NCBI GenBank assembly: GCA_945860955.1
Contig: CAMATH010000042.1
Coordinates: forward strand, 1 to 59,408
DNA from: Planctomicrobium piriforme
GTDB lineage: Bacteria; Planctomycetota; Planctomycetia; Planctomycetales; Planctomycetaceae
DNA: 59,408 bases
Direction: 5' to 3'
Both the position numbers and the translations under genes were made by a program. This document shows, one piece after another, positions 10,014 to 46,652 of this stretch (its first letter is position 1; each line of letters opens with the position of its first letter). Below the pieces are notes generated by a model, which worked only from the letters and a program-made list of their open reading frames with translations, was not told the origin of the DNA and searched no databases.

Positions 10014-10026
10014 CTGGAGCGTCAGC

Positions 10027-11085: not shown

Positions 11086-12133
11086 ACTGTACGACCGCTG
11101 TCGGAAGCACCAGAACCTGCTGGGGACGCTGGCGTCGATCGAGGAGGAGCTGAACAAACGGTTCTTCGAGGCCGACAAAGCGGTTCGGGCCATGATTCTG
11201 GCGGTAGCAACCGGCGAGCCGCTCTTGTTCGTCGGGGCTCCCGGCGTGGCCAAGTCGATGATGATTCGGACATTCTGCCGCATGACGGGCCTGTTGCCGC
11301 CGGAGGATCCTTCGCCGTCCGACGTCATCGAGCAGTCGGCAGAGTATTTCGAGTACTTGCTGACTCCGTTCACAGAGCCGGGCGAACTGTTCGGGTTCTG
11401 GGATTTTGAAAAACTGCACAACGAACACGTTCTGCAGCGTGCCAACCACGGACGGATGATGCAGCACGCGCGGGTCGTGTATCTGGACGAAGTCTTCAAC
11501 GGATCCGGGGCGATTCTGAACTCGATCCTCAGCTTTCTGAACGAGCGGTTGTTTCACGACAACAACCGCGTGATCCCTGTCGGTATGGAGAACCTGTTCG
11601 GTGCCACGAATCAGGTACCGGAAACCGACGACCTGCGCGCTGTCTACGACCGCTTCGTCCTGCGGTGTGGCATGCACAATGTGAAAGCGACCGGCGAGGC
11701 TCTGCGCGGCCTGCTGGCCCGTGGCTGGAAGACGACTTACTCGAAGCGCGTCGAACCGGTTGCGGATGTAAAGAACTTCTGGAATTCGCTCGCCGCGTTC
11801 CGGAACTCGCTGAACGACCTGACGCTCACGGACGCCCCACCGGTTTATCAAGCGCTGGCGACGATGATCTCGACGGCTCGTCGCTATGAAATGTCGGATG
11901 TTTCGAATCGCCGGTTGATCAAGTTCGTCCGCGTGATGGCGGCGCATCGAATCTACGAAGGCTGCTTGTCGAACGAGAAGCCGCGGCAGTTCGATGAAGC
12001 TCCGGTGCGACGTGAGGATCTCGCCCTGCTCGGCAAGTACTTCCTGGACGTCGTGGATGATCCGGAAAACGAACAGAAACTGAATCAACTCCTCAGCCTG
12101 ACCAAGCTCGAACCCTGGAAGGAAGGGCCGTGA
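11069..12133 (+). CDS. RavA-type MoxR AAA+ ATPase
   Basis: A 354-residue AAA+ ATPase of the RavA branch of the MoxR group, distinct from the first MoxR. Walker A GAPGVAKS is at residues 56-63 and Walker B VVYLDEVFNG has D140/E141. The run FEYLLTPFTEPGELFG and the segment GAILNSILSFLNER are close in pattern to Escherichia coli RavA, and the ATNQVPE sensor and LRAVYDRF arginine-finger region are also present. E. coli RavA works with a VWA partner, ViaA; the candidate counterpart is the next gene. The ATG lies 17 bases inside the end of the preceding gene, and the stop overlaps the next start. The protein is shorter than E. coli RavA (about 500 residues) and lacks its long C-terminal extension. 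Confidence 0.9.
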   Translation: MFRGNELYDRCRKHQNLLGTLASIEEELNKRFFEADKAVRAMILAVATGEPLLFVGAPGVAKSMMIRTFCRMTGLLPPEDPSPSDVIEQSAEYFEYLLTPFTEPGELFGFWDFEKLHNEHVLQRANHGRMMQHARVVYLDEVFNGSGAILNSILSFLNERLFHDNNRVIPVGMENLFGATNQVPETDDLRAVYDRFVLRCGMHNVKATGEALRGLLARGWKTTYSKRVEPVADVKNFWNSLAAFRNSLNDLTLTDAPPVYQALATMISTARRYEMSDVSNRRLIKFVRVMAAHRIYEGCLSNEKPRQFDEAPVRREDLALLGKYFLDVVDDPENEQKLNQLLSLTKLEPWKEGP

Positions 12134-13986
12134 TCATGACCGGCGCACCACAATCAGAGACGGCCCGTTCGCGAGAAGTTCCGCATGCGGGGATAGTGCC
12201 GTCCGCTTGCCGCACGCTGCTTGCCGGCCCCGGCCGGTGGAAGCCGCGTGTGCGAAGCTGCAGCGATCGGACCCGTTCGCTGATTCAGGCGCTTCATGAC
12301 CGGCATATCGGGATTACGCCATGGCTGGCGGAACGACTCGAGGCAGCGCTGGATCCGGGGCGGCGCGAACCAGCGTCGCCCGAGCTTGTGGATCCGTGGG
12401 TGATCGCGATCAATCAACTCAAGCAGGCGCTGCGCGTCCGCGGATCGGATCAGAACGCGGGGATGGCGAATGCGGGGCGGGCAGTGATTGTCTCAGCCGC
12501 TCCGTCGTACTTCGTGTTTCGAGTCGCGGCGTTTCTGTTGGACCGCGCGTGTCGGCGCATCGGGCGAACAGTTCTGTTCTGTGAAGACTGGCTGCTGCTG
12601 CGAGGTGTTTCGGAGACTGCCTACCTCGAATACGAACGCGAACTGATGACCGCTCTGTTGGCTGTCGTGCGCGACGAGGAAAACGAATTGGAGCTCTTCT
12701 GGTACGAGTCGGCGGTCACGCTGTCCGGTCGTGCCAGCAGTCTTTCGGGACACGGACGAGACGGGACCTCGATGCCGCAGGTCACACCGGTGGCGACGGC
12801 GTTGTTGAAGCGGATGCGCCCGTCGATCCCGGATGATGAACCGGATCGTAAGACGATCCGGCGGCTCGAACAGTCACGTCCGCTGAGAACTCTGCGTAAG
12901 CATCGCCGAACCGACGGGATCAACGGGGTCACGATGACGCGGTCGATCGAGGATCTGAGTGACATCATGCTCAGCGAACTGACGCTTCCAGAGCTGATGC
13001 AGATGCAGCGGCTGATGAATGAAGGCTATCTGTCACGTTTCCGGCCTCCGAAACAGGAACAGAATCGTGACGTCCTGTTGGCGGTGCTGCTGCCGGGGGA
13101 AGTCCGGGACTCGCTGCCGGGGACGTTTGTGAAAGCCTGCTGGTTCGACCTGTGTCTGCGACTGGGACAGAGGCTGTGCCAGAGCGGACTGTATCAGAGC
13201 GAGTTTCGTCTGATCGAAGGCGACCGGCTCGGCATGTACCGCACGGAATCGTTCCCGCTGGCGGCGCTGCGTGCTCCCGAACTGGCCGACGGCGATCAAC
13301 CGAGTGAGTTCTACCGGCATGACTTTCTGAATTCGATGCACTGGCTGCCGCGGTTTCTCAATGAGCAGGGAATCTGGTCGGATCCGGTGCCGCAGCGCGG
13401 AGGCGACGGCCTTTCGACAGGTGACAACATCGCCGACTGGTGCGCCGCCGCGTGGAAGTCACACGTCGAACTTCCGTCGCCGGTCACAGGCACTCCGTCT
13501 CGAAATGGCTCAACTCGAAGCGGTTCATCCCGCACCGGCTCGGCAGCGCAAAGTGTTGCGGAATCGAATCGTGGTTCTGCATCCAAGCGCCGATCAGGGA
13601 GCACGCGACTGCGACGCAATTCCGCCAGTCTGGAAATGGCCGACTTCAAGTTCATTCATGTGATGGTGGTCTGCCCGAATTCGTGTCGAGGTAATCCGCT
13701 CAACGTTTCTCAGAAGCAGTTGAAACGGCGACTCCTGCGCGGGGCTCCGCCGACGGCCAATCTGAGCGTAACGTGGATTCCGGACGATCTGCAGATTGAT
13801 GGCTGGAAGTTCGATACCGGACGAGAGCCGGCGGAAGAGATCCTGCCTGCCAGCGGCTCGGGAACGAGCGGAGCTTTTGTGACCTGGAATCAAGCCCATC
13901 TGGAAGCGGACGATGTATCCGGTTTCGCAGGTGGGCTTGTCGGGAGCTGGTTCCGGCAAATCCAACAGGAAATCTGGCAAGGGTGA
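12130..13986 (+). CDS. Uncharacterised protein, possible degenerate VWA partner of RavA-type ATPase
   Basis: A 618-residue protein, probably cytoplasmic. In the middle, about residues 275-330, the pattern 'DLSDIMLSELTLPELMQMQ, then RLMNEGYLSRFRPPKQ, then VLLAVLLPGEVRDS' resembles the region leading into the VWA domain of MoxR-associated proteins. There a helical SEL-LPEL stretch precedes the first beta-strand and its DxSxS metal site. Here the DxSxS is absent (PGEVRDS), so any VWA fold would be metal-free. A Ser/Arg-rich linker (about 455-495) precedes a C-terminal segment with a hydrophobic strand (FIHVMVVCP). GTG 12130 overlaps the previous stop as GTGA; ATG 12136 is the alternative start. 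Function is inferred only from position. Confidence 0.7.
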   Translation: MIMTGAPQSETARSREVPHAGIVPSACRTLLAGPGRWKPRVRSCSDRTRSLIQALHDRHIGITPWLAERLEAALDPGRREPASPELVDPWVIAINQLKQALRVRGSDQNAGMANAGRAVIVSAAPSYFVFRVAAFLLDRACRRIGRTVLFCEDWLLLRGVSETAYLEYERELMTALLAVVRDEENELELFWYESAVTLSGRASSLSGHGRDGTSMPQVTPVATALLKRMRPSIPDDEPDRKTIRRLEQSRPLRTLRKHRRTDGINGVTMTRSIEDLSDIMLSELTLPELMQMQRLMNEGYLSRFRPPKQEQNRDVLLAVLLPGEVRDSLPGTFVKACWFDLCLRLGQRLCQSGLYQSEFRLIEGDRLGMYRTESFPLAALRAPELADGDQPSEFYRHDFLNSMHWLPRFLNEQGIWSDPVPQRGGDGLSTGDNIADWCAAAWKSHVELPSPVTGTPSRNGSTRSGSSRTGSAAQSVAESNRGSASKRRSGSTRLRRNSASLEMADFKFIHVMVVCPNSCRGNPLNVSQKQLKRRLLRGAPPTANLSVTWIPDDLQIDGWKFDTGREPAEEILPASGSGTSGAFVTWNQAHLEADDVSGFAGGLVGSWFRQIQQEIWQG

Positions 13987-13990
13987 ATCC

Positions 13991-16291
13991 ATGAGCCGCC
14001 ACAGTGAATCGAAACAGATCGACCGGTTTCACCGGCTGGAGTCATTGGACGCTCAGCGTGTTTTCACGCTGTTGCGGCCGTTTCTGCGCGAGCTTGATCC
14101 CCAGTTGCGGCCACTGGCCGTTCGAGAGATTAAGATGCAGATTCTGCCGGCGCGGAACGGGGTGAGCGTTGAGCTGCTGCTGCCGGAGTTCAAGGGGCCG
14201 AGCGAACCGTTGAACGTTTTGAACGAACAATTCGCAAATCTGCGCGAGCAATACGGCAAGCAGATGGGGCGCAACGCAACGGTCGACCGGGGTCGCGGGT
14301 TCGAGCAGGCCGCGACGTTGCTCGGAGGGCTGGCCGGACTCCTGCTGACTGGGTATTCGCTCAGCGGCGAAAAGCCGGCCCAAGCGGCGGCTGGCGAGTA
14401 TCTGGCCGTGTCCGACCCGGGGTTGACGCAGGAGCAAGCCGGGACTCTGTTCGCACACATGGCGATGCAATCGACAGCGGCCCGCTGGTCCGTCGCGGAG
14501 GTCGGCGGACGTCCCCGTTACTTTTTCTGCGGAAAAAGCGACCGCAGTCGCAACGGAAACTGGGAGAGCCTGGCACCTGAGTTGCAGTCACAGTTTCAAA
14601 TACTGCGGGCCTTCCGCCGCGACACCTTCACGGTGTTCCTCCCCGAGAGGCTGGCTTATCCGTTGCTCGGCGAGGCCGAGCCCGAGGTCATTCCCGGAGT
14701 CGACGTGTTGTCACAGATGAAGGAATTGCTGGAAGAGTGTCCGGAAGTACTGGCGCTGCCTCTGTCTGAAGACGGCGTGCATCACAGCGTGTTGCTGGCC
14801 GTTCTGCCGGCTCAAAACTCCGGTTTGAATCACACGGCGGATAACGTGCTGCGGGCCGATCTCCTGGCGTTGCCGGCCGGGCGGTTCCATCGCAACTACT
14901 TCCTCGATCCCGAATATCAGCGGATCCACGTGACGCCGCAGAATCTGGAATTCACGGCAACGGCGCACGAGGGACTGCGGTCGCATCTGAAGCGGCAGAA
15001 GGGTTGCGAGGGCTACCGGCTTGAGTTGCGCGACACCGGATTGCGTACGTGGGAGCAGGACATCGGCGAGATTTACCGGCGTTACCAGGACTACGAATAC
15101 AAGTACCGCCTTTGGTCCGAAGCAAACGCGGTCCGCCCAGCGCTGATGAGGTTCTCGCACGACCAGTTGCCCGAGCTGGCCCGTCTGCTGCGGGCACTGC
15201 CCTTGCGGACGTTGAACAGTGCCGGCCTGAGCTATGCCTGCTTTACTCCACAGGAGGCGTCGCCGACGTCGCCGGCAGATGCCGATCCAATCAGCGAGCT
15301 GTCTTACCACTATTTGTACTTCGATCATGGTTGGAGCGATCTGGCCGAAGTCGCTCCGTTGTTGAACTTCGCGCGACAGTGCGAACGCCCGGGGGTTCGC
15401 ACCAAAGGCCGGCCGGAGACGATGAGGTTCTGGCTGGATCCGTTCTGGGCGCGGTCCTATCACACGGGAGGGAGCCGGGCCGATACTCCCGGCGAGAATC
15501 GGTGTCTGGTGTTTGTTCCGGAAGCGAAGGCTCTATTTCCGACGCTGCACGGCTGGGATCCGGCCGAGATGGAGGCGTACCTGCGTGACGTATTGACTGA
15601 CTTTCTGTCGCCGGGGCAGAAGGGCATGCTGGGATCGCGTCCGCTGTTCCTGTTTGATGGGCCGTACGGTCCGGACGACGATCGCATCTGTATCACGTTG
15701 CTGGACCGCAATGAATTCAAGCCGTTCCGGCAGCGGCTCGACTGGGTCAACGACCATCTTGACATCCTCGAAGCGATCGACAGTGACAAGGAGCGGCGAG
15801 TCGCGGTGACGGCGAAGATTTCCGGGATGGCGAATCTGGCGCGCTGGGAGGTCATCGCCGACGAACTGGCATCGCGCGGACGGCCGGCTCAGGATCGTGT
15901 CGAAGCGGTGGCCCGGCAGTCACACCAGGAAGTCCTCGAACTGGTCCGCGGCGAGTTGTCCGTGTTCGACGCGCAGTTGAATGACGCGTTTCAGCGACTG
16001 CAGACGGTACTCGAACAGGCCCAGAAGCTGAATGCGGAAACCGTTGAATTACGAGCATTCCTGCGGGCCGCGGAATCGGCCCGCAATGAGATGCTTGGTT
16101 CTGCTCGACGGTTGCAACAAACAACGACGTCTGGCGTGACGAGCTTCGAGGAGTGGGAGAAGAAGGCCGCCGAGACGCTTGAGAGATTTCGCGTCTCACG
16201 AATTGAGACAGAAGATTCAATCCGCAAGTCGGCGACAGAACTGGCGGAATCGCGGAAACGCATCCTCGCGTTTCTGTCGCAGCTTTGGTGA
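13991..16291 (+). CDS. Uncharacterised protein with C-terminal coiled coil
   Basis: A 766-residue protein I do not recognise. One short hydrophobic stretch occurs near residues 100-118 (AATLLGGLAGLLLTGYSL). The last 120 or so residues (about 645-766) are Glu/Arg/Leu-rich with heptad-like spacing and look like a coiled coil. There is no signal peptide and no catalytic motif. It starts at ATG 13991, four bases after the preceding stop; an upstream in-frame ATG at 13913 would overlap the previous gene by 74 bases and is less likely. Its position directly after the ATPase/adaptor genes suggests a structural or scaffold role in the same complex. Confidence 0.7.
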   Translation: MSRHSESKQIDRFHRLESLDAQRVFTLLRPFLRELDPQLRPLAVREIKMQILPARNGVSVELLLPEFKGPSEPLNVLNEQFANLREQYGKQMGRNATVDRGRGFEQAATLLGGLAGLLLTGYSLSGEKPAQAAAGEYLAVSDPGLTQEQAGTLFAHMAMQSTAARWSVAEVGGRPRYFFCGKSDRSRNGNWESLAPELQSQFQILRAFRRDTFTVFLPERLAYPLLGEAEPEVIPGVDVLSQMKELLEECPEVLALPLSEDGVHHSVLLAVLPAQNSGLNHTADNVLRADLLALPAGRFHRNYFLDPEYQRIHVTPQNLEFTATAHEGLRSHLKRQKGCEGYRLELRDTGLRTWEQDIGEIYRRYQDYEYKYRLWSEANAVRPALMRFSHDQLPELARLLRALPLRTLNSAGLSYACFTPQEASPTSPADADPISELSYHYLYFDHGWSDLAEVAPLLNFARQCERPGVRTKGRPETMRFWLDPFWARSYHTGGSRADTPGENRCLVFVPEAKALFPTLHGWDPAEMEAYLRDVLTDFLSPGQKGMLGSRPLFLFDGPYGPDDDRICITLLDRNEFKPFRQRLDWVNDHLDILEAIDSDKERRVAVTAKISGMANLARWEVIADELASRGRPAQDRVEAVARQSHQEVLELVRGELSVFDAQLNDAFQRLQTVLEQAQKLNAETVELRAFLRAAESARNEMLGSARRLQQTTTSGVTSFEEWEKKAAETLERFRVSRIETEDSIRKSATELAESRKRILAFLSQLW

Positions 16292-16336: not shown

Positions 16337-16403
16337 GTTTCGCGGGCAGACGACATCCGACATGACGGTTCGCGTTCTGGCGAACGCGGATACGGAACGA
16401 AAC

Positions 16404-16877
16404 ATGGCAACGAAGTCAGACAATTCGACAACGGACGATTCACCGTTTGCCAATGAGTTGGCGCGGACTGAAGCGTCGCTGCGCGAATGGCAAGTGGAAT
16501 CCACTCGTTGCCGCGGCGAGTTGCAGGAATGGGACGGTCTTGAGTCGGTCGTCGATGACCGGAAACGCGCACACCAACGACTGCGAACACAGATTCGCGT
16601 CGCGCTGCGAGCGGCCCGCAACGCCACGCGGTGGCAGTTCTCGATTCTCAGTTCGCTGTGGTCGGTGTTGCGGTTTCGCTGGCTAAGCACGCGACTCTGG
16701 ATGCTGCGGCTGAAGATCGTGTTGATCGCATTCGCGATTGCGATCAACCGGCTGTTGGTCTGGTCGCGGCGTGTGCTGATCCCGCTCGCGCTGCTTTGGG
16801 TGGCCATTGAGCTGGTGCGGTTTCTGTGGAGTGTCGGTTTCCAGTTCTACGAGCGAATGGTCCGCGGTCTGCTATGA
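16404..16877 (+). CDS. Small membrane protein with N-terminal helical region
   Basis: A 157-residue protein with a soluble N-terminus rich in Glu, Arg and Thr, probably a short coiled coil over residues 15-60. It is followed by two closely spaced hydrophobic segments in the C-terminal half (the stretches LRLKIVLIAFAIAINRLLVW and VLIPLALLWVAIELVRFLW). I chose ATG 16404, which has GGA seven bases upstream; an alternative in-frame ATG at 16362 would add 14 residues. It lies within the large cluster and is likely to anchor or regulate the complex at the inner membrane. No family is recognised. Confidence 0.65.
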   Translation: MATKSDNSTTDDSPFANELARTEASLREWQVESTRCRGELQEWDGLESVVDDRKRAHQRLRTQIRVALRAARNATRWQFSILSSLWSVLRFRWLSTRLWMLRLKIVLIAFAIAINRLLVWSRRVLIPLALLWVAIELVRFLWSVGFQFYERMVRGLL

Positions 16878-18736: not shown

Positions 18737-21700
18737 ATGTCACACGAAACCAATTCGAACCCCACCATGTTGTTTCCATTTCGAATCCGCCGCAGTTCGA
18801 TCGTCAGTCCACAGCAGCGAGCTGTCGCATGGCACTCGTTTGTCTGGCGCTGGGACAGCGCGATGCTATTGCTGCTGATTCTCGGTTTCCTGCTGTGGGC
18901 GTTTGTGGTCCGCCGCATGGATCTGTGGGGAGCGTTCGACGGTTCCGGGCAGTTCGAACCGGTGGGTGATTCGCGCAAACGATTCGACGTCGAAGAAGAG
19001 ATTCGTCGGCACGGCGTTCTCGACGCGACACATCGCGGGGACCGGCTGGTCGTCACGCTGAAGGGGGGCGGCGTCCGAGAGTACGACACCGGGATGGACA
19101 TCTGGGGCAATCTGCCTCCATTGCCGGAGACGCTGGTCGACCGCGACATCGTCCAGATTCGGGCTGGCAACGGGAATGGCAATGAACCGTTCGATGAGCG
19201 GCGCGACCGCTTGTTCGCGCGTACCGCCAGCGGCGGACTGGCCGTGCTGCGGGATGATGGCTGGCAGGTCATCTCCCGCGATACAAAGTTCTTCGGCCTC
19301 AGTGGCCGGCCGGTGGAATGGCGTGACGTGACTGCGGCAGCGGTGTCCGACGACCGTCGGCATGTCGTGCTGGGCTGCCGCACCGAGGGACTCGGACTGT
19401 ACGACGCCCGTGATCGTGTATGGCCGAGAATCGAAGGGTTGAGCCGCCTACGGGACATCGGAGCGATTCGCGAAATCGCGTGGTGGAAAAGTCGCGGCTG
19501 CTTCGTGATCGGCGGCGAACGCCGACTGGCGCTGTTTCGGGTGCCTGGCAATCCCGCGGCGGCGATGGAGCCTCCGACTGCGGTGGATTCCGCGGGGGTG
19601 ACTTCGGGGGACACCGATGACTCCATCGAACTCCCGTCCGAGTTCGCCCGCGAAATTGTGGATCTTCACGTGACGCCTCAAGGCACGCTGTGGGTACTCG
19701 ATCGACAGCCGCGGTCGCCGAATCAAGTGCGGATTTCGAATTGGGCGGCGGATCGCGAACCCGTGGTGGAGTTCGAAGAGAACGAGATTCACCTGGGCCT
19801 GACCCTGAGCGACTTGAACTTCGCGATGCAGATCGACGACCGGCTGTTCGTCTGCGGCGAAACGACCAACGACGCGACTTGTGGAGTCTTCGAATATCAC
19901 TGCGACCGTCACGCGTGGTCGCGACGTTCCACGACGCCCGTCAACACCACTCTGCGGAGTCTTGATGGCGGGAGTTTCTATGTCGGGACTGAGAAGACCG
20001 TCGAGCAGTTTCCAACTGACGCGAACAGCTCAATCTGGCGATTCGAGGGTTCCGACAGATCGGTACAGCGTCTGATCTGGGGCCGCGCCGGCGAGATTCT
20101 CGCGCAGTTGAAAGATGATCGAATCTTCTCATTGCGGCGCGGACAGCCGCCGGTCGAAGTGTTTCACGCGCCGGCATCAAACGTCGATCTGGCGACTGTA
20201 CATTCGGCGTACGATCTCGACGGCACCCACATTCTGCTGGTCGGTCCTCACTCCGCGGTCATCCACAACACGCAGACTCGCGTCTATGACGACTTTCCGA
20301 TCTCAAGTGATGACCAAGAAGCGAAATGGTTGGCCGAGCCAGGTCTGAGTTTCGCATCGACAGGCGGATCGGCGTTCTTCCATTCACAGGACGGAACGGT
20401 TCGCGTCTTGCCGCTGCGCGACCTGATTGGCGGCGGCAAGCGGTTTCAGCGCGTGAAACCCCATCAGGTCGCCGCCGGAACAGCGCTCTCGCTAATGCCG
20501 ATGTCAACCGGCAAGGTCGCCGTGCTGGATGCTGATCGCGTGCTGCATCGCATTGATGCGTCTTCGGGCGGTCCTGTGGTACTCGGCGGCCGTCGGATTC
20601 CCGAGTCGTCGGGTCAGACGCTTGTGCCGCGGGACGTCGCTGGCTTGACGACGGAGACTCTCGCAGACCGTGACAGCGCTTTTTTGTTCCCAGAACAGAA
20701 GCGGCTGACCGTGCATCGGAGTGACTCACGCGAATTGCAGAATTACGCCTTGCCGGAGGATGAGGAGATTCTGGAATTGGCCTCCATGAAGTCGCGGCTG
20801 CTGATGCCGACCCGCGATGGCGATGTGTACGACTTCCGATCAACGAAAGATCGCTGGCCACCCCAGGGAGCGACGTCCGTGCTGCTTGGCGGCGATGGTC
20901 GATTCAACTCCAACGTCAATCTCGACATCACGGATGACGAACTGTCGGACGTGCGGGTTGATACCGACGGCGACCTGTATCTCGCCGGAGCGGGCAAAGT
21001 CGTGCGTTATTCGCCGGCTCACCGACGAGTGGTGGATCGCTGGAACTACGCCAGCACGAGCAGCGTGCGTCTGGCCGGAATCTCGAATCACAAGCCTGTG
21101 GCAGTGATTAATGGACATGTCATGCACGGCTCAGATTCAAAGTTGGAGGAGGCATCAAGGGCGGAAACTGTGAGCCTGTTCCACGAGCAGTTATGGATCA
21201 CCGCCACGGGTGCCGACGGACTTCGGCGATTGGGGTGGTATCCCCGACTGAATAAGGATCCGCGGCGGCAGTTCGTTTTCTTCAAGCATCCGAAGTCCGA
21301 TGCCCGGCAATTTCTTGATGCCGTTCGGCTGTCGAGCGGCGGTGAGGCCGATGGGGACGTGCTGGTATCAACGGATGCCGGACTGCGCGTTTACAGCTCG
21401 CGAGCCCGCTCGTGGTACTGGTTCAAGGACAAATCGTTTTTTGCCGCCGCGGAACTGTACCGGCTCGGCGATTTCGTGCTTGTCGCGAAACGACTGGGTG
21501 AGCGGCGGTATGAACTGGGCGTGTTTCATGTCCACGGTCTCAAAGTTCCGCACGAACCGGACGCGAGTGCGCTGACTTTCCGGAGCCCGCTGTGGCAACC
21601 GCCATCTGAACTGCGTGCCTTTGCCATGGACGAGACCAAGGGCGACTTCGTGTTCGTGTTGCCAGACAATTCCGTGCATCGCTGGCGTCCCGGAGTCGGA

Positions 21701-24700
21701 ATCGCAAGTGGCTCGTCGGTAGTCGAGATCGCCGCACCGGGAGACTCGCCGGAGGCGAGCGATTTGAAGCGTGTGGTGTCGTGTGGTTCGTATCTGTGCT
21801 TTGCGGGTGAAAAGGTGTTGTGGACTTACAAGACGAACTCACATACGTGGCGTCGACTGTCGTTGAAATTTCCGGCGGGGACGACTGCGAGCGACTTTTC
21901 GGTGCAGGGCATCGAGAATGATCCACGTCTGGATCAGGTGTGGTGCGCCGTGCGAAGTGGTGGAGAACTGCTGGTGGGTGCGTGGACGACCACTGCAGCC
22001 TCCTCGGACATCAACTTGAAGTCGCTGTTCAAGCCGAGCGCCAGCAGTTTTATGGGGAATGCAGATCGGCTGATTGATGCTCAGCAAATGATTGATCCCG
22101 AGAAAAACAGTGACGTCATCACATTGCTGCAGTCTGACCGAGTCGACTGGTTTCATCCAGACCGGCGCGAACACCGTAGCGGTGCGTCTTTTCCCGGCGC
22201 GTCGCCAACCGAAAAGCTCATCTACGGGAAGATTGACGGACGGCGGATCGCCACGAACTCGCTGGGCCGATTCTGGATTGCAAAGTCAAGCGACGAGTTT
22301 CCGTCGGGTTTCCGATACTGCGATGTCGATCCGAGTGGTGACACGAAGTACGCGTTCGATCAAAGTGCGGCCGTATGGCGTCGCCAGCCCAATGGCGGGA
22401 TCGACGTCTGCCAGACGGCGGCAGCGGTGTCCGATGAATATCAATCATTTGCCGCCCAGATCGTGCCGATGGAAGTCGACCCGGCATCCGTACTGGCCGT
22501 CTATCCGTGGCACGACCTGTCGGTCCTGCTCACTGTGGAAGGGGCCCGCGTCTACGACGAGAAGCAGTTTCGCGAAGTCTCCGTCAGCGACGTGAAACTG
22601 TCTCCCGTGAAATCGCCACTGTCTCGATCTGGACTCCGCGCGTTCGAAGATGACGGCTCGCTGTGGATCCAGCGCGATGGTGCGCTCCTGCATCTCGCCG
22701 GATCCTCTGACCCGTCGAAGTCCCTCGCACCGCCTCCACGGCTGTTTCGTGATGCTGTCGAGTTCGTGCCGTTTTCAAGCGGGCAACATTGGGTTCGCGC
22801 GACGAATCAGTGGCACTTCTGGAGGCCGGCCGAGCGCATGTTCGCGCCGGTGCCCCGCAGTGCCACACCCGTCGCCGAGTCGGGTCTGAAACTCTTCCTC
22901 CGGTCCGATCTGTCGCCGGTGGCGATCGATCGCGCCAGCCGGCAACTGTTGTGGTGGAACCCGGCTGGTTCATGGAACGCCCGGTCAACCGCGATTCTGC
23001 CGTCGAATGTTGTCCTCGACGAGATCCGCTGGCTCGCCCGTGACGGACGCGACTGGTGGGCTCTGTTCGACGACCGCATTGAACGGCTCGCGGAACGGCG
23101 GCGGGAGGCGTCCTTCGGTCTTCACGTTGTCGACTCGTACCGACTCTCTGCGGCGGTGCGGAACGGTCTACGGGAGGGGCTGCTCAACGTGCGATTGAGC
23201 GACGACGGCATCGAATTCGTCGGCGTACGTTGTGGCTGCCGCGCGGCGGCCGTCTCGGAATCCGTCACCGAGCGGGGCGACTTTCGCTGCTCTGGCGGCC
23301 TGCAATGGTGGACCTCGCGGATTGATGAATCTCCATTGGCCACTTCGCTCGACGCGAATGCCCGACTGCTGTTCATTGACGAACTCCACCAAACCGGCTG
23401 GCTTGCGACCGACGACAGCACCCGCTTCTTCGCGCTGATGGCTGACAAGTCGCGTCTGCCAGGTTCAGGCAACCACTCCAGCGTCGCCAAAGCGGCGGCT
23501 GGCGTCCTCTGGTCGAATCCGAATCCGCTCGACGCGGACACACGCCGGTTGCTCGCCGGTCGGGAGCAGCGACTGTCGTTGACCGGGCTCGAACTTCCGT
23601 TGATCGGCGCACGACCACTGGCTCACGTGTTCGCCGAACCCAACCTGAAAAACTCCGCGACCGGTACGGCGGACGCTGTGTCTTTCAGCCTCCCCGACCG
23701 CCATTCAGAGTCTCTGCACAAAATCCCACGCGGTACTCCGTTGCGGCTGGTTGAGCGGTTCGAGCGGTTCTTACCGGCCGATCAGTCGACAGAAGTCTGG
23801 TATCGCGCGGTGCGGGATGACTTCACCATGTTGTGGACACCGGCCGCGCAGCTTGATCTGGAAAAGTCCCGAGTCACGGCGGATTCGGCGCCGCTGTATA
23901 GCGATCCCCGCGGCGACTCCCCTGTCGTTGGCCGGTCGCCGCGTGGAACGGCGATGAGTGTTGTCGGGGTCCAGAAGGGTTGGGCACTTCTGTTTCTCAC
24001 AAAGGCTGAAGTCGGGTGGCTGCCCGAAACCGCGGTCAGGCTGAAAGTCCCCGTCGCATCGGGAAAATGGTCGGAAGTTGACGTTCAGACTTCTGCCCGC
24101 GCGGCGGCGTTTCGCCAATCGATCGCGAAGGCACAGGTCGAATTCGGACCGAACGGAGCTTTGACGGTCACATTGAGTGAGACTGGATCGACATCGCGTC
24201 GCATGGCTGTGGTCGATCCCTGGCCGTCGATCAGCTCGCTCCGTCGCGACGGCAATACGGGCTGGGAGTCCCGCTTCGGAAAGGTTCCCAACGGCCGGCC
24301 GGCCTGGCAAGCGGTCACAGATCTCGAAATCAAACAAGGCTCGCTTGTGGCACTGCGTCCCGGCGGCGATGTGAAGCTCGCACCGGCCGGTGGATTTCTT
24401 GAAGTCAAAGGCATCAAGGTCGATCGGTCGCTCAATCTCGGCTGGTTGAAATGGGACCGCCAGTCGAAGCATTTCGAAATGAACTGCACCGATGGTCCGC
24501 AGGTATTCCCGCCGAGTGCGATCGTTGCGGCTGTGCCAGGCGGCGGCACTCGGTTCCTGTTCGAAGAAGTCGACGGACTCGTCTATCGCGAGTCAGGGAA
24601 ACCGTTTGTCAGCAATCGTCACGGCGTCTGGCGGTACGACAGCGACAACCTCTCTCTGACGCGCGGCACCGTTGATTCCGTCGAATTCCGGCCGCACGTC

Positions 24701-27700
24701 GGTGCCGTAGCGGCACGCCCCTTTGTCGGCGGTTTTCTCGACGACAAAGGGGCGTACATTCAAGCCGTGAAAGGAATGCCCGTCGCCAGCGGTCACACGG
24801 GTCACAACGTGGTCAAGCACGGCCCGGTCACGTTTCACGAAGATGTACGACAGACTCCGCTCAAAGTCACACTGACTCGAATGGACCGTACAGTGCTGAC
24901 GGACAAAGTGCTGACAGATGACGGATTCAACTGGGATCGCCGGCATAGTCTCGCGATCAATGCTGCCGGGGTGTTGCTGCAATCGGATGCCGGGGTGCAT
25001 CAACATGCCGCCGTCCCTGAAAGCGAATTCTCGGCGTCCCCTGAAGAACAGGGCCGGCTCTTCAGTGAAGATCGCGCGACAACCTGGCTTCATCACGGCG
25101 ACGACTGGTGGAAGCAGACGCGGAGCGGCTGGACGGCGGTCGACTCGCCGCGGCTGAACCGGACGCTCGTCGCTGCGGCCGCGGCTGGCGGTTGGAGCTG
25201 GAAGCGAAACGGCGCGGGTGATGTCACGGTCACCTGTGCCGGCCCGGCGGTCGGTTTTCGGCAGGTCGCCGACGCCAGCGGCATTGTGTACTTCACCTCA
25301 GACGAATTGGGCGACGCCGCAGCCTTTGATGGAGAACTGCACGTGGTGACGCAGTCCGCGCATCAGTTCATGGATCTAGCCGCGACGGCAACGGAGCCAT
25401 TGGCTGTCGGCGGGTCGCTCGATCAGGGGACCGCCCGGCAGCCGCTTCCCGCAAAAACGAAACTTGAGGAGATCGATCTGGCAGTTCGACGCGACCGGAA
25501 CTTCGGAGCCGCGAATCGTGGCGAGATCCTCTATCGCATTATCAATGGACGTATCGAGCACTGGAACAAGCCGACGGCCCGCTTCGAACCGACTCTACCG
25601 GCGGACAATCCGCTCATGCTAGAACGGCTCGCCTCGACATCGCGGCTGAGGTTCTGGCGGCACGACGACGCTCGCCTCAAGAAAGAAGTGCGGCTGGACA
25701 AACCGGTCGGAGGAGACGACTGGGTTGAATACACGTTCAGCGTCGTTACTGGACCGCGTTCGCAACAGCAGATCCGATTTCCGTTCGACCGGGCCAAGTC
25801 CGTGGCAGCACGCTTTGGACAGTTGTTTGTGGGCACGGATTGCGGACTGCAAGTCAGTCCCGAATCCGACGCAATCGACGAGACGAAGGCCGGGAAGTTT
25901 GACCTGCATCAGCCGACATTAAGACTATTACAAGTGCGCGACGGCGGCGGCAGTCTCGTCGTCGATCGCGTTGGGATTCCGTTTGCGAATCCGACGGTCC
26001 TCGCGGTTCGATCGGACAGTCTCTGCCTGGCGACTTCGGACGGGAAGACGTTTGTGGCGCAGCCTTCCGGCCGGGAACTGGACGAGCGACTGCGCTTCCA
26101 GAGCGCACTCTGGCAGTGGCGCGAGCAGACCGTGTCAGCGGATACCGAAGCGCGCCCGTCCACCAATGCGACGGCACCCAAGGCGGCTGCTTCCAAGGTG
26201 GTGTTGGCGGGGCGTTACATCAATGAGCGTCGTGTCTACGACTCCGAGTTGATCGACTTCACTAACGGCCGATTGCCGCACGATCGGATCATTGATGCCA
26301 CGCATCACGACGGCCAAACCTTCACGCTCTGGCACGACGGCTGGCTCACGACCCATTCCGGTGACAACGCCGATTTCAATGCCGGTTTCCAGAACTTCGA
26401 CCAGCGGAGCTTCAAGCCGACGGGCCTGTTTATCGTTCGCCATGCGAATCTGCAGTTGCAACCGAGTCTCTATGTGAGAAACGATCAGCGCGATGTCCTG
26501 CGGTACGACGGACCGACTGGCCAGTGGCTGCCGGTCCGGATGGACGAAGAACGGCGGCGTCTCAATGACTACGCGGCAAGTCGGCCGGCGTTCTCGCGCG
26601 ACCGTTTGCGGTTGGTCGTCAACGATCAGCGGCAGTTCCAATTTCAGTATCTCACGCTGCCGACGTCCGCCAGCCCAAATGGCCAATGGCGCGAACTTCC
26701 CTGGAGGCCTCGTGATAACTCTGACGTCGGCACAGCCGCGGTGCGGTTCTGTCTTGAGTGCGATCATTGGCAGGAATTCATCTGCGATCAACGCAGCGAC
26801 TCGCTCTGGGCCGCGACGCCAATGGGTTTCTGTCGCTTCAGCAGAGTGGCCGGGGATTCCCGACCCGCCTCGGGTTCGCCCCATTCAGCGACCGCGCCGG
26901 GACGGGTCAAACTGCGACTTGACGAATTCGTCTCCGCTCGACAACACGCCGATGCGGAGCGGCTGTCCGTCACGGAGATCCGTATTGCCACGGCTCCTGC
27001 CGGCGCGACGCAGCAGGTCCCCGAACAATTCGCCGTCGAATTTCGTCGCGATTACGACAGCGCGCACGTCTACTCCGCCACGCTGGATACTCGTCGAGAC
27101 ACCGGTGTGTTCCAGAAATTCGACCGTTCTGACAAATCGGTATCGAAGACCGATCCGTTCGCAGAGCAGGAGCCCGTCAAGACCAGCTTCTGGAAATGGC
27201 GACTGACCGGGCGGAATGGCCATCACGCCTCAAACAAACGACACCCTCAGCCGGGCAAGCTGGAATGCAGGCTCTTAAGCGAAGCTCCGGATGCCCCTGG
27301 TGAGAACATCGATCTGTCTAGCGGACGCTTCCCATTCGACCAACCGGATTCGCTCGTGTGCGACGGCAAGGCCGTGCATCTCGCCGCACCTTTTGGCGAA
27401 CCACGATTCGGGTGGATCGCTGTGAATGGCGAAGATCTCCATCTGCGGCACTGGAAGCGGCCGTTCGACCGGGAAACCGCCAAAAGAGTCGAGCGCGTCT
27501 TTCCGGCCAGAAACAGCGAGCACAACGAGGTTCTGGGACTGCTGACGGCTAACGGCGAAGTCCTCACGATCCTTGGAAACAAAGAGAAGAAAGAATCGGA
27601 CTTGGCAATCTTCGCAGGTGACGACGGCTTCTGGTCGTACCGACAAAAGCCGCTCACATCGTCGCGAGAGATCTCGTCCAGGACTACACCCGCGTCTGCC

Positions 27701-28588
27701 TCGACCCGATTGCCGGGTGAACTCCTCGCAAACGTGAGGACTGGGGCGCAGGGAATCGGGCGGCGGCATCTATTGGCCGGGCAGTTCACCGATGACGTCA
27801 TCTGCGGCCTGCCTGTCCAGCGGTTCGCGTTCGACGCGGGCACACAGGGTGTTACCGACGACGAGTCCGACTCCTGCCAGTACTTCATACCGACTCTGGC
27901 TGGTATTGAAGGCCGAACCGCCGACTTCAGCCGTCAAAAGCTCGAACCTCCAAAAGTGCCGGACCAGGCCGACGATGCGACAGATTCGGCAGAGCGGGCT
28001 CCGCGTGTCGTCTATCTCGACGAGAAGCACAGGTTGCACTGGTTGTCGCTGAATTCATCAGACCCCGGCGAAATCCAGATGTCCCGCCTCGATTCGTTCG
28101 ATCAACGCAGCACTCAGATTGTCACCCAGGAAAGAGAGGTTCTGGTTCCCACGGATGCTGTCCCGATCAGCGCCAGACGAGACATGCTCGGGAACTTCCT
28201 CATCCGCTGGAAACGGCACGACGAGACCGGATGGACGTTGATCGAGAAAACCGGGAACGGAGCAAACGCAACTTCCGAAAACACTATGCGGATCCCCGTC
28301 CAAACGTGGCGACGGTTCCAGCAGAACCGATACGTCTGGGGCAACCCGGAGCCGGTCCTGACTCTTCGCATCGACCCGGCGATTCATCATCTCATCGTAC
28401 TGGACTCAAAACACAACGAGAATTCCCACCGCATTCGCGCCCCGCAGGAACCCATCATTGAACTGATTTCATACGGCTCACAACTGCTGACTGTCACCAC
28501 CACGGGTGTCTACAAATTGCAACTCAACAGGCCCTTGGTCACGGCGTTCTCTGGCGCGGGTACCCCCGCCGCTACCAATCCCGACTAA
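18737..28588 (+). CDS. Giant membrane-anchored propeller-like protein with SH3b-like segments
   Basis: A 3,283-residue protein. One hydrophobic helix (about residues 42-58) follows a basic N-terminus, giving a type II anchor with almost the whole chain probably outside the cytoplasm. The body is made of many irregular beta-rich repeats of the kind seen in regulator-type and WD-like propellers, for example GDVLVSTDAGLRVYSS and LFVGTDCGLQVSPES. Two consecutive SH3b-like segments lie at about 1648-1712 and 1713-1775 (SLPDRHSESLHKIPRGTPL; APLYSDPRGDSPVVG). No catalytic site is seen. It is the last gene of the cluster. Likely role is a large binding or scaffold surface. The start could also be the ATG at 18767. 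Repeat and SH3b calls are by pattern only. Confidence 0.8.
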   Translation: MSHETNSNPTMLFPFRIRRSSIVSPQQRAVAWHSFVWRWDSAMLLLLILGFLLWAFVVRRMDLWGAFDGSGQFEPVGDSRKRFDVEEEIRRHGVLDATHRGDRLVVTLKGGGVREYDTGMDIWGNLPPLPETLVDRDIVQIRAGNGNGNEPFDERRDRLFARTASGGLAVLRDDGWQVISRDTKFFGLSGRPVEWRDVTAAAVSDDRRHVVLGCRTEGLGLYDARDRVWPRIEGLSRLRDIGAIREIAWWKSRGCFVIGGERRLALFRVPGNPAAAMEPPTAVDSAGVTSGDTDDSIELPSEFAREIVDLHVTPQGTLWVLDRQPRSPNQVRISNWAADREPVVEFEENEIHLGLTLSDLNFAMQIDDRLFVCGETTNDATCGVFEYHCDRHAWSRRSTTPVNTTLRSLDGGSFYVGTEKTVEQFPTDANSSIWRFEGSDRSVQRLIWGRAGEILAQLKDDRIFSLRRGQPPVEVFHAPASNVDLATVHSAYDLDGTHILLVGPHSAVIHNTQTRVYDDFPISSDDQEAKWLAEPGLSFASTGGSAFFHSQDGTVRVLPLRDLIGGGKRFQRVKPHQVAAGTALSLMPMSTGKVAVLDADRVLHRIDASSGGPVVLGGRRIPESSGQTLVPRDVAGLTTETLADRDSAFLFPEQKRLTVHRSDSRELQNYALPEDEEILELASMKSRLLMPTRDGDVYDFRSTKDRWPPQGATSVLLGGDGRFNSNVNLDITDDELSDVRVDTDGDLYLAGAGKVVRYSPAHRRVVDRWNYASTSSVRLAGISNHKPVAVINGHVMHGSDSKLEEASRAETVSLFHEQLWITATGADGLRRLGWYPRLNKDPRRQFVFFKHPKSDARQFLDAVRLSSGGEADGDVLVSTDAGLRVYSSRARSWYWFKDKSFFAAAELYRLGDFVLVAKRLGERRYELGVFHVHGLKVPHEPDASALTFRSPLWQPPSELRAFAMDETKGDFVFVLPDNSVHRWRPGVGIASGSSVVEIAAPGDSPEASDLKRVVSCGSYLCFAGEKVLWTYKTNSHTWRRLSLKFPAGTTASDFSVQGIENDPRLDQVWCAVRSGGELLVGAWTTTAASSDINLKSLFKPSASSFMGNADRLIDAQQMIDPEKNSDVITLLQSDRVDWFHPDRREHRSGASFPGASPTEKLIYGKIDGRRIATNSLGRFWIAKSSDEFPSGFRYCDVDPSGDTKYAFDQSAAVWRRQPNGGIDVCQTAAAVSDEYQSFAAQIVPMEVDPASVLAVYPWHDLSVLLTVEGARVYDEKQFREVSVSDVKLSPVKSPLSRSGLRAFEDDGSLWIQRDGALLHLAGSSDPSKSLAPPPRLFRDAVEFVPFSSGQHWVRATNQWHFWRPAERMFAPVPRSATPVAESGLKLFLRSDLSPVAIDRASRQLLWWNPAGSWNARSTAILPSNVVLDEIRWLARDGRDWWALFDDRIERLAERRREASFGLHVVDSYRLSAAVRNGLREGLLNVRLSDDGIEFVGVRCGCRAAAVSESVTERGDFRCSGGLQWWTSRIDESPLATSLDANARLLFIDELHQTGWLATDDSTRFFALMADKSRLPGSGNHSSVAKAAAGVLWSNPNPLDADTRRLLAGREQRLSLTGLELPLIGARPLAHVFAEPNLKNSATGTADAVSFSLPDRHSESLHKIPRGTPLRLVERFERFLPADQSTEVWYRAVRDDFTMLWTPAAQLDLEKSRVTADSAPLYSDPRGDSPVVGRSPRGTAMSVVGVQKGWALLFLTKAEVGWLPETAVRLKVPVASGKWSEVDVQTSARAAAFRQSIAKAQVEFGPNGALTVTLSETGSTSRRMAVVDPWPSISSLRRDGNTGWESRFGKVPNGRPAWQAVTDLEIKQGSLVALRPGGDVKLAPAGGFLEVKGIKVDRSLNLGWLKWDRQSKHFEMNCTDGPQVFPPSAIVAAVPGGGTRFLFEEVDGLVYRESGKPFVSNRHGVWRYDSDNLSLTRGTVDSVEFRPHVGAVAARPFVGGFLDDKGAYIQAVKGMPVASGHTGHNVVKHGPVTFHEDVRQTPLKVTLTRMDRTVLTDKVLTDDGFNWDRRHSLAINAAGVLLQSDAGVHQHAAVPESEFSASPEEQGRLFSEDRATTWLHHGDDWWKQTRSGWTAVDSPRLNRTLVAAAAAGGWSWKRNGAGDVTVTCAGPAVGFRQVADASGIVYFTSDELGDAAAFDGELHVVTQSAHQFMDLAATATEPLAVGGSLDQGTARQPLPAKTKLEEIDLAVRRDRNFGAANRGEILYRIINGRIEHWNKPTARFEPTLPADNPLMLERLASTSRLRFWRHDDARLKKEVRLDKPVGGDDWVEYTFSVVTGPRSQQQIRFPFDRAKSVAARFGQLFVGTDCGLQVSPESDAIDETKAGKFDLHQPTLRLLQVRDGGGSLVVDRVGIPFANPTVLAVRSDSLCLATSDGKTFVAQPSGRELDERLRFQSALWQWREQTVSADTEARPSTNATAPKAAASKVVLAGRYINERRVYDSELIDFTNGRLPHDRIIDATHHDGQTFTLWHDGWLTTHSGDNADFNAGFQNFDQRSFKPTGLFIVRHANLQLQPSLYVRNDQRDVLRYDGPTGQWLPVRMDEERRRLNDYAASRPAFSRDRLRLVVNDQRQFQFQYLTLPTSASPNGQWRELPWRPRDNSDVGTAAVRFCLECDHWQEFICDQRSDSLWAATPMGFCRFSRVAGDSRPASGSPHSATAPGRVKLRLDEFVSARQHADAERLSVTEIRIATAPAGATQQVPEQFAVEFRRDYDSAHVYSATLDTRRDTGVFQKFDRSDKSVSKTDPFAEQEPVKTSFWKWRLTGRNGHHASNKRHPQPGKLECRLLSEAPDAPGENIDLSSGRFPFDQPDSLVCDGKAVHLAAPFGEPRFGWIAVNGEDLHLRHWKRPFDRETAKRVERVFPARNSEHNEVLGLLTANGEVLTILGNKEKKESDLAIFAGDDGFWSYRQKPLTSSREISSRTTPASASTRLPGELLANVRTGAQGIGRRHLLAGQFTDDVICGLPVQRFAFDAGTQGVTDDESDSCQYFIPTLAGIEGRTADFSRQKLEPPKVPDQADDATDSAERAPRVVYLDEKHRLHWLSLNSSDPGEIQMSRLDSFDQRSTQIVTQEREVLVPTDAVPISARRDMLGNFLIRWKRHDETGWTLIEKTGNGANATSENTMRIPVQTWRRFQQNRYVWGNPEPVLTLRIDPAIHHLIVLDSKHNENSHRIRAPQEPIIELISYGSQLLTVTTTGVYKLQLNRPLVTAFSGAGTPAATNPD

Positions 28589-29278: not shown

Positions 29279-29284
29279 ATCGAA

Positions 29285-29357
29285 AGCCGCCACCGCGACT
29301 CGAACGCGGGACCTACGCTTTACGAAAGCGTCGCTCTACCAACTGAGCTATGGCGGC
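29285..29357 (-). tRNA. tRNA-Thr (anticodon CGT)
   Basis: The minus-strand sequence folds into a complete cloverleaf. The acceptor stem is GCCGCCA/TGGCGGC, the D-stem GCTC/GAGC, the anticodon stem ACGCT/AGCGT with loop TTCGTAA (anticodon CGT, reading ACG codons), and the T-stem CCGCG/CGCGG with loop TTCGAGT. The discriminator base is T and the CCA end is not encoded. No intron or mismatch is seen in any stem. Confidence 0.97.
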
Positions 29358-29371
29358 CTGGAAGGGGACGG

Positions 29372-29400: not shown

Positions 29401-29505
29401 GTGCGTCGGACACTTGTTGAAGGCGGGCAAGTGAGCCGTCGTCGGCGTTTCGTCCCGGGGACATGCAGCTAAGATGGGGATTGAGACGCGGAGCGGTACA
29501 GTTGT

Positions 29506-29514
29506 TGCTACACT
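29506..29514 (+). promoter_or_regulatory. Candidate extended -10 element for the Ser/Thr kinase gene
   Basis: TGCTACACT fits an extended -10 (TGn followed by a TATAAT-like TACACT). It lies 50 bases upstream of the chosen ATG at 29565 and inside the longer open frame starting at 29463, which supports the shorter start. No good -35 box accompanies it. Confidence 0.25.
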
Positions 29515-29564
29515 GGTGCCGTTGTTCGCAGGCATTCGCAGTCACGGATTCGTCGAAACATCTC

Positions 29565-46602: not shown

Positions 46603-46652
46603 CGTAAGATTCGGTGGCAACGAACCCCGTTTTTTCGATTTCAGAGACGAAA

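What the first reader, a model, noticed from the sequence alone, without database searches (positions are those of the whole stretch)
18737..28588. A 3,283-residue membrane-anchored protein built of propeller-like repeats with embedded SH3b-like segments
One N-terminal helix and then more than 3,200 residues of beta-rich irregular repeats of the regulator/WD type with two adjacent SH3b-like segments in the middle. SH3b domains often bind peptidoglycan. A giant cell-wall-binding propeller scaffold attached to an ATPase cluster is unusual.
Basis: partly seen in the sequence, partly recalled or inferred. Interest (0 to 1): 0.65.

Follow-up and report, generated by a model that had tools for sequence, protein, structure and literature searches.

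The report
Giant propeller protein in MoxR operon
A 3,283-residue membrane-anchored bacterial protein made of propeller-shaped repeats turns out to be the last gene of a large, apparently undescribed operon with two ATPase motors, kept in the same gene order in scattered and unrelated bacteria, so it is probably the outer scaffold of an ATP-driven machine in the cell envelope.

Summary
The ORF is real: 18737-28588, 3,283 aa, one membrane helix. A model of residues 62-1150 is all-beta, 84 strands (about 21 blades), matching multi-propeller proteins. One SH3b is marginally supported (1717-1762), not two. SH3_3 was not found in the matching middle segments of 20 homologues, so peptidoglycan binding is not a family trait.

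The main result lies outside the finding. The giant ends an eleven-gene operon (MoxR, DUF58, two VWA membrane proteins, G06, bpMoxR, two unassigned proteins, two membrane proteins, giant). The operon recurs on Paracoccus megaplasmids; 20 of 33 genome loci hold G02-G09, G11 and G12, in several phyla. In Planctomycetota 1 of 392 sampled genomes holds it, plus one marginal partial hit. Charge bias in 22 of 22 and paired cysteines in homologues place the chain outside the cytoplasm. In one alphaproteobacterial clade an anti-phage Shango system lies beside it.

Best reading: extracytoplasmic scaffold or client of a two-MoxR chaperone machine, possibly a conflict system; function untested.

The parts
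1228..2976 (+). G01: five predicted membrane helices plus a long G/Q/P/S-rich low-complexity tail
   Evidence: Pfam 0 families; same kind of protein (>=3 helices, >=55% G/Q/S/P/N/D/A in the second half) directly upstream of G02 in 16 of 23 loci examined, window included; 15-bp repeat x32 at 2137-2622. Membership by position and composition only.
3045..4250 (+). G02: MoxR-type AAA_3 ATPase (first MoxR)
   Evidence: PF07726 185.8 bits; Walker A GNPGLGKT; Paracoccus counterparts E 3e-67 and 3e-65
4247..5284 (+). G03: DUF58 protein
   Evidence: PF01882 35.5 bits; Paracoccus E 3e-25 and 9e-25
5182..7149 (+). G04: Bat-like membrane protein with VWA domain (helices near 32, 93, 625; DGSGS)
   Evidence: PF13519 29.8 bits; helices; motif; Paracoccus E 3e-9 and 2e-6. 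'Bat-like' rests on layout, no Bat model was hit.
7050..10013 (+). G05: membrane protein with two VWA stretches (MIDAS DASGS at residue 528)
   Evidence: PF13519 50.1 bits, 2 stretches; DxSGS in 28 of 29 rows; Paracoccus E 3e-28 and 8e-28
9991..11085 (+). G06: 364 aa, no known family
   Evidence: Pfam 0; iterated profile hits 33 of 35 loci, some weakly and some being members of the profile itself
11069..12133 (+). G07: second MoxR (bpMoxR/RavA group)
   Evidence: PF20030 bpMoxR 153 bits; 41% identical to both Paracoccus copies; P-loop GAPGVAKS
12130..13986 (+). G08: 618 aa, unassigned family with a conserved central block
   Evidence: Pfam: two stray hits (E 0.036, 0.039) in 19 members; PDB none at E<=0.1; Paracoccus E 1e-23 and 1e-21
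13913..16291 (+). G09: 792 aa, unassigned, C-terminal part of coiled-coil type
   Evidence: Pfam 0 for the window copy, scattered weak hits, many to coiled-coil models, in 18 members; Paracoccus E 4e-12 and 8e-10
16362..16877 (+). G10: 171 aa, two membrane helices
   Evidence: helices at about 110 and 137; no sequence match in Paracoccus; a small membrane protein sits at this place in L041 and relatives of it in L040, L042
16933..18717 (+). G11: 594 aa membrane protein, unassigned
   Evidence: helices near 24 and 80; weak to Paracoccus (E 0.004 and 0.035); 26 further rows in the family profile
18737..28588 (+). G12: the giant, 3,283 aa, membrane-anchored multi-propeller protein
   Evidence: Paracoccus E 5e-13 and 9e-13
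18854..18910 (+). membrane helix of the giant (residues 40-58), N-in/C-out by charge
23885..24022 (+). SH3b-like domain (residues 1717-1762), particular to this copy among the segments scanned
   Evidence: PF08239 24.4 bits; 28.5 bits in a fragment; 1 of 21 members
22697..23746 (+). region rich in insertions particular to this copy, between the two halves (residues 1321-1670)
   Evidence: five runs of 34-68 residues present in at most 4 of the 21 other proteins

Best explanation
The giant is the extracytoplasmic scaffold (or client) of an ATP-driven MoxR/VWA chaperone machine that spans the inner membrane. Shown by sequence: two MoxR ATPases, DUF58, membrane VWA proteins with MIDAS motifs, unassigned soluble proteins, two membrane proteins and a single-pass giant with at least about 21 modelled propeller blades, kept together in one gene order in scattered phyla. 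Inferred: the cytoplasmic MoxR rings with G06/G08/G09 couple through G10/G11 to the anchored giant; the VWA domains of G04/G05, facing the periplasm as in Bat proteins, bind it; ATP hydrolysis assembles, loads or remodels the propeller scaffold. Inferred more weakly: the machine is a conflict (anti-phage or anti-element) system rather than housekeeping, because it is rare, patchy, plasmid-borne in Paracoccus and adjoins Shango in one clade. The SH3b is a late addition at the joint of the two halves in this copy.
For: Gene order: Paracoccus plasmids; 20 of the 33 genome loci hold G02-G09, G11 and G12. Of all 35 loci 25 show the giant, 6 end at a contig edge before or just at its place, 4 lack it. 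Apart from other MoxR: 32 loci at E<=5e-60, L069 (contig edge, 194 residues) at 2e-45, the other 47 kept at 6e-42 or weaker; clade of 36 rows supported 100/100 against 4 outgroup rows. No giant (E<=10) and no G06, G08, G09, G11 (E<=1) hit in L070-L118. Topology: charge bias 22 of 22; Cys pairs both present 15-20, both absent 1-7, single 0-2 of 22. Propeller fold. A Bat-type VWA protein, BB0173, has its VWA in the periplasm (PMC5700661, abstract and passages). Rarity: 0 of 3 congeners with all candidates scored; 1 of 392 Planctomycetota plus one marginal partial hit, only 3 candidates scored per genome. Shango: SngA and SngC in L140, SngB and SngC in L141, all three in L146 by PADLOC, BLAST relatives in L035 and L036; Shango is a tested anti-phage system (PMC10250203, abstract and passages).
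Against: No direct evidence that the proteins touch each other. PADLOC gives only P-loop-level scores (best 14.4 bits) in the 9 operon proteins scanned. The Shango association is confined to one clade, so possibly one event, and in L141 it lies on the other strand than the giant. The giant has no sharply hypervariable stretch and evolves only somewhat faster than the MoxRs, unlike the variable effectors of described conflict systems. The window copy lacks 18 and L134 19 of the 20 conserved cysteines, so disulphides are not essential to the fold. Four Acidobacteriota loci keep G06-G09 without the giant, so the giant is not indispensable to that core. Searches with single proteins found neither the giant's N-terminal part in 98 nor G09 in 296 other relatives, but at about 20% identity such searches are weak.
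Confidence: 0.45

Rival explanations
1. Envelope maintenance: an enlarged Bat/RL3499-type MoxR-DUF58-VWA chaperone that keeps the cell envelope or a periplasmic complex intact under stress, the giant being its scaffold; no role in conflict.
For: G02-G05 resemble the Bat layout (MoxR, DUF58, Bat, VWA; SH3 and TPR also occur there) described in PMC5700661 (passages); RL3499 is important for membrane integrity and morphology in R. leguminosarum (PMC3893208 introduction, passage; the primary paper is not held). Conservation along the giant without a hypervariable block.
Against: Housekeeping would not predict such rarity in the phylum or carriage on megaplasmids typed as conjugative; a second MoxR with G08/G09 is not part of Bat operons as described there.
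Confidence: 0.33
2. It is simply a beta-propeller ternary conflict system of Kaur et al. 2020 (bpMoxR, vWA with propeller, membrane propeller protein), with an oversized third component.
For: G07 matches PF20030, the model named for those systems, at 153 bits; those systems have a third component with a membrane segment and propellers (PMC7159879 section 22).
Against: No VWA in G08 by Pfam (19 members) or by hhalign against the operon's own VWA and DUF58 profiles; no TPR family in the giant; no giant, G06, G08, G09 or G11 relatives in the 49 other MoxR loci at hand. The P-loop form is shared by those loci too and so does not discriminate.
Confidence: 0.12
3. One reading: a cell-wall-binding propeller scaffold that holds peptidoglycan through SH3b domains.
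For: One SH3b-like domain in a probably extracytoplasmic chain.
Against: SH3_3 in 1 of 21 middle segments scanned; the place is a shorter stretch without recognisable domain in the homologues, proline-rich in about nine of 21 by eye; first segment 0 families.
Confidence: 0.06
4. Part of an injection or secretion apparatus.
For: NCBIfam CIS12_fam matches residues 283-411 at 26.6 bits, and 2 of 19 members match it at E<=0.01.
Against: Curated cut-off is 860 bits; about 128 of 715 positions; no sheath, tube or baseplate family among the Pfam hits of the operon. Best read as propeller-to-propeller similarity.
Confidence: 0.04

Closest known systems
MoxR-vWA-beta-propeller ternary systems (Kaur et al. 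2020, PMC7159879)
   Same: bpMoxR-type ATPase; membrane-tied propeller protein; planctomycetes among the holders
   Different: two MoxR genes, DUF58 and VWA membrane genes, unassigned families G08/G09, a giant of 2.4-3.3 thousand residues; no vWA-propeller fusion found; the words DUF58, Paracoccus and acidobacteria do not occur in that main text; section 22 and passages were read, supplements not
Bat / RL3499-RL3502 MoxR operons
   Same: MoxR, DUF58, membrane VWA proteins in one operon
   Different: a second MoxR and further genes including the giant; no TPR protein seen
RavA-ViaA of E. coli
   Same: the three solved sequences that the G07 profile finds at E<=1e-10 are all RavA (best 1.3e-35)
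   Different: no ViaA-like partner recognised; membrane and giant components added
Extracellular two-component-sensor propellers (BT4673, 3ott; BT4663, 4a2l)
   Same: weak profile matches (E 1.3e-4 and 0.075) and extracytoplasmic propellers on a membrane anchor
   Different: no kinase; many more blades

Membership tests
Beta-propeller ternary system (Kaur et al. 2020) | MoxR component of the bpMoxR type | tested here: met
   PF20030 153 bits, cut-off 27; but the model also passes on G02 (31.4 bits), and RavA is the nearest solved relative
Beta-propeller ternary system (Kaur et al. 2020) | P-loop GXXXTAKS in the MoxR component (said to be frequent, not universal) | tested here: inconclusive
   GPPGTAKS in 28 of 36 rows of the G07 family, window GAPGVAKS; also in 43 of 49 other MoxR loci, so not discriminating
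Beta-propeller ternary system (Kaur et al. 2020) | vWA component with a C-terminal propeller of about four blades | tested here: inconclusive
   VWA found in G04/G05 without propeller families; none in G08 by Pfam or hhalign; folds of G04, G05, G08 not predicted
Beta-propeller ternary system (Kaur et al. 2020) | third component with membrane segment, TPR and propeller | tested here: inconclusive
   membrane helix and propellers present; no TPR by Pfam; residues after 2750 not folded
Bat / RL3499-type operon | MoxR + DUF58 + membrane VWA protein | tested here: met
Bat / RL3499-type operon | TPR protein | tested here: inconclusive
   no TPR family among Pfam hits of the operon genes; Pfam can miss divergent TPR
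Beta-propeller fold | radial four-stranded blades | tested here: met
   by predicted model for residues 62-1150; residues after 1590 only weakly
Bacterial SH3 (PF08239) | score above curated cut-off of 27 bits | tested here: inconclusive
   19.8 (whole protein), 21.5, 24.4, 24.6 and 28.5 (fragments)
CIS12 contractile injection protein (NF053768) | score above curated cut-off of 860 bits | tested here: not met
   26.6 bits
Known anti-phage system (PADLOC 2.0.0) | operon genes match a defence family | tested here: not met
   9 of the window operon's proteins scanned (G02-G09 and G11; not G01, G10, giant): only P-loop level hits of G02, best 14.4 bits

The most novel reading that the evidence does not exclude
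A transferable envelope-sited immune machine: two MoxR ATPases drive a giant extracytoplasmic array of some 50-60 propeller blades (extrapolated) that senses or blocks incoming phage or plasmid DNA at the membrane, and in Paracoccus and relatives it is wired to the Shango effector through the TerB_N-like protein that sits between the giant and SngA.
Probability: 0.2. Interest if true: 0.88.

Novelty: new variant of a known kind. Interest (0 to 1): 0.62.

Why it matters
It joins, in one conserved operon, two MoxR modules that are otherwise described apart, and gives them an obvious large extracytoplasmic partner. If it is a defence system, it would act at the envelope with a propeller scaffold far larger than those I know of (recalled, not searched); if it is a chaperone for envelope assembly, it offers tractable species (Rhodobacter capsulatus, Azospirillum brasilense) to find out what MoxR/VWA pairs do. 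Six searches of the held library (listings and abstract starts seen) and the word search of the nearest paper showed no published account.

Tried and rejected
Whole-protein PDB search with P0001: no convincing hit (best E 0.26). CIS12 match: rejected, far under its cut-off. G08 as a divergent VWA: no support from hhalign against G05 and G03 (probability 0.05% and 0.07%) or Pfam; not excluded, since no fold was predicted. Island signature in the window: GC of operon 0.612 against 0.601 downstream, and no exact same-strand repeat of 14 bases or more of the adjacent tRNA-Thr elsewhere in the window; no sign of recent insertion. Contamination of the contig: the gene at 46614-48122 has relatives 75-77% identical (in pieces, with stops) in one congener and 40-42% in two others, so the contig probably belongs to the genus. 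Hypervariable region in the giant: three pairs compared in 150-residue steps; lowest steps are the N-terminal tail (two pairs), the C-terminal end, and the joint region in one pair (41-48% against 55-71% elsewhere), nothing sharper. Viral homes: the MoxR scan found two loci of generic MoxR, without other system genes. First genome-contig scan with one MoxR found nothing. Dropped rows: L132 (Oscillochloris giant, in several frames) left out of the alignment; contig-edge loci L037, L039, L044, L048, L055, L069 not counted for presence or absence of the giant; L042 could be looked at for only about 6 kb past G09; the G444 hit (22.6 bits, 3.5-kb stretch, only G08) not counted as a member. VIA rows name Rsa4 at the top (Z 20.7); that it is a client of the MoxR-like Rea1 is recalled, and it is tied with other WD40 proteins, so no weight was given to it.
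Full report
1. The observation. The window is contig C42 of an 8.4-Mb genome in 282 contigs. The ORF 18737-28588 is open for 3,283 codons. Hydropathy gives one membrane helix at about residues 40-58. Sequence libraries see almost nothing in it: Pfam only SH3_3 at 1717-1762, 19.8 bits, below the cut-off of 27. A 161-residue fragment lifts the same match to 28.5 bits, a 75-residue one gives 24.6, and a fragment of the first supposed SH3b gives 0 families. So one SH3b is marginally supported and the second is not.

2. Fold. An alignment of the window and 18 locus proteins over residues 62-1150 gave an AlphaFold2 model with mean pLDDT 71.1 and pTM 0.49. It contains 84 strands, about 21 blades of four. 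Foldseek returns 1,715 PDB chains at E<=0.001, headed by DDB1-type multi-propellers; TM-scores by the query's length are low (0.14-0.22 in the 50 rows shown), as expected if the mutual placing of domains is wrong, but this also means that the whole arrangement is not established. VIA-align puts model residues 423-776 on WD40 propellers at Z 20.7, rmsd 4.4, 303 residues, many propellers being tied. A second model, residues 1590-2750, is poor (pLDDT 54.8), its best match Z 8.6 over 111 residues; the SH3b stretch is unresolved there.

3. The operon. Eleven genes on the same strand, some overlapping and none far apart, end with the giant: G02 MoxR (AAA_3), G03 DUF58, G04 membrane VWA, G05 double VWA, G06 unassigned, G07 bpMoxR, G08 and G09 unassigned, G10 and G11 membrane proteins, G12 giant. 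A tblastn of G07 against plasmids found two Paracoccus megaplasmids at 38-39% identity, 94-97% coverage and 222-223 bits; the best match in the other 196 relatives of the window's genome had 122 bits. Both megaplasmids are typed as conjugative. In these, phmmer recovers G02, G03, G04, G05, G07, G08, G09 and the giant in the same order (best E 3e-67, 3e-25, 3e-9, 3e-28, 1e-67, 1e-23, 4e-12, 5e-13; E-values relative to the ORFs of the two loci). G11 (0.004) and G06 (0.03) are weak there, and G10 gave nothing.

4. Distribution. A scan of genome contigs (one genome each of 84,980 species) with the three aligned MoxR proteins kept the best 80 of 337 relatives. 32 of these 80 have E<=5e-60; L069, cut by its contig, has 2e-45; the other 47 have 6e-42 or weaker. 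The 33 loci L037-L069 come from Acidobacteriota, Aminicenantes, Alphaproteobacteria, a Thiosymbion, an Alteromonadaceae, Chloroflexota, a cyanobacterium and Opitutia; with the window and the plasmids they form a clade, 100/100 against 4 outgroup rows. Profiles built from three copies, then from the family, find the other operon genes in order in these loci; 20 of the 33 hold G02-G09, G11 and G12, and L070-L118 hold none of G06, G08, G09, G11 or the giant. Of the 35 loci (33 plus two plasmids), 25 show the giant, 6 end at a contig edge, and 4 (L038, L040, L041, L042, all Acidobacteriota) continue without it. L038, L041 and L042 keep G06-G09 without the MoxR/DUF58/VWA half; a small membrane protein after G09 is seen by eye in L041 with relatives in L040 and L042; L040 also keeps G05. 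In the window's own phylum a G08 profile found 1 of 392 genomes plus one marginal partial hit, with only the 3 best candidates scored per genome, and 0 of 3 congeners with all candidates scored. In the tree the window sits on a long branch whose exact place is unsure. Horizontal spread is the simplest reading.

5. The giant family. 22 full-length giants (window, 2 plasmids, 19 genomes) were aligned. The window copy is the longest; it carries insert runs of 292 residues in total that at most 4 of the other 21 share, 239 of them between residues 1321 and 1670. At the place of the SH3b the homologues have a shorter stretch, in about nine of 21 plainly proline-rich by eye, mostly bounded by two cysteines, and SH3_3 matches 1 of 21 middle segments scanned, the window's. 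The SH3b therefore looks like a late addition at the joint of two propeller halves. All 22 have an N-terminal helix with higher net charge on its N side. Taking the 20 conserved cysteine columns in order as ten pairs (my assignment), both are present in 15-20, both absent in 1-7 and one alone in 0-2 of 22. The window lacks 18 of the 20, L134 19, L143 11. Concerted gain or loss suggests disulphides, hence an extracytoplasmic chain in the homologues; for the window copy the topology rests on homology and charge.

6. Mechanism. Background: MoxR ATPases act with VWA proteins in the maturation of complexes (PMC3893208 introduction, passage; PMC7159879, passages), and in Borrelia a Bat-type VWA protein is fixed in the inner membrane with its VWA in the periplasm (PMC5700661, abstract and passages). 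G05 keeps the MIDAS DxSGS in 28 of 29 rows. From this I infer that the cytoplasmic ATPases and the extracytoplasmic VWA domains act on the anchored giant. No interaction is shown.

7. What for. For conflict: rarity and patchiness, plasmids typed as conjugative, and neighbours. In L146 (Paracoccus lutimaris), L140 and L141 genes after the giant match PADLOC Shango models: SngA 286 and 254 bits (L146, L140), SngB 573 and 577 (L146, L141), SngC 845, 862 and 933 (L146, L140, L141); SngB of L140 and SngA of L141 were not scanned. BLAST relatives lie in the same place in L035 and L036. A 582-617 aa protein with a weak TerB_N match (23.8 bits, cut-off 25) stands between giant and SngA in L146, with relatives in L035, L036, L140, L141 and L142. 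In L141 the Shango genes are on the opposite strand to the giant. Shango parts also occur on other plasmids, whereas the giant was found on two plasmids only, so the two are separate units that met in one clade. Shango protects against phages (PMC10250203, abstract and passages). Against conflict: nothing beyond P-loop level in the window's operon matches PADLOC, the giant shows no sharply hypervariable region, and the MoxR/DUF58/VWA half suggests envelope upkeep. I give conflict a modest lead within the machine reading, at 0.45 for the whole statement and 0.33 for envelope maintenance.

8. Comparison and novelty. The nearest described kind is the beta-propeller ternary system of Kaur et al. 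(PMC7159879, section 22 read). The bpMoxR criterion is met; the vWA-propeller fusion and TPR criteria are inconclusive, and I do not file it there. The nearest by gene content of the first half is the Bat/RL3499 operon. No paper describing the joint operon was found in six searches of the held library, which lacks most subscription journals. I call it a new variant of a known kind.

Noticed in passing
L146:9322-17123; L140:1440-9088 (-); L141:11709-18501 (-); L035/L036 after the giant: Shango anti-phage genes (SngA, SngB, SngC) directly beside the giant in the Paracoccus/Rhodobacter clade, with a TerB_N-like protein in between in several loci.
   Followed up: partly
window 1228-2976 and the gene upstream of G02 in other loci: A multi-helix protein with a very long low-complexity G/Q/S/P tail precedes G02 in 16 of 23 loci; many end in a P-x-W motif near the C-terminus that the window copy lacks. 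In the window a 15-bp repeat of 32 copies lies in this gene.
   Followed up: partly
L138:10180-11097, L139:9699-10820, L149:7696-8685 (-), L144, L148, L145, L150, L151: A 306-380 aa gene directly after the giant, in at least two small families that do not match each other.
   Followed up: partly
L038, L041, L042: Acidobacteriota keep a reduced operon without the giant; L041 and L042 share a 1,060-1,072 aa protein downstream instead.
   Followed up: partly
L049:2173-3630; L037:2020-5421: By eye only: a TIR/SEFIR-like protein and a STAND-NTPase-like protein upstream of the operon, both conflict-type neighbours.
   Followed up: no
window 29463-31787: Serine/threonine kinase with a weak Cache match next to the operon; it falls in one loose BLAST cluster with proteins near the Acidobacteriota copies, among them a kinase in L038.
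   Followed up: no
window 48929-57442 (-): A second giant, 2,837 aa, read by eye as alpha-2-macroglobulin-like with tetratricopeptide-like ends.
   Followed up: no
window 29284-29358 (-): tRNA-Thr (CGT) 0.7 kb after the giant, a common kind of insertion site, but no same-strand repeat of it of 14 bases or more elsewhere in the window.
   Followed up: partly
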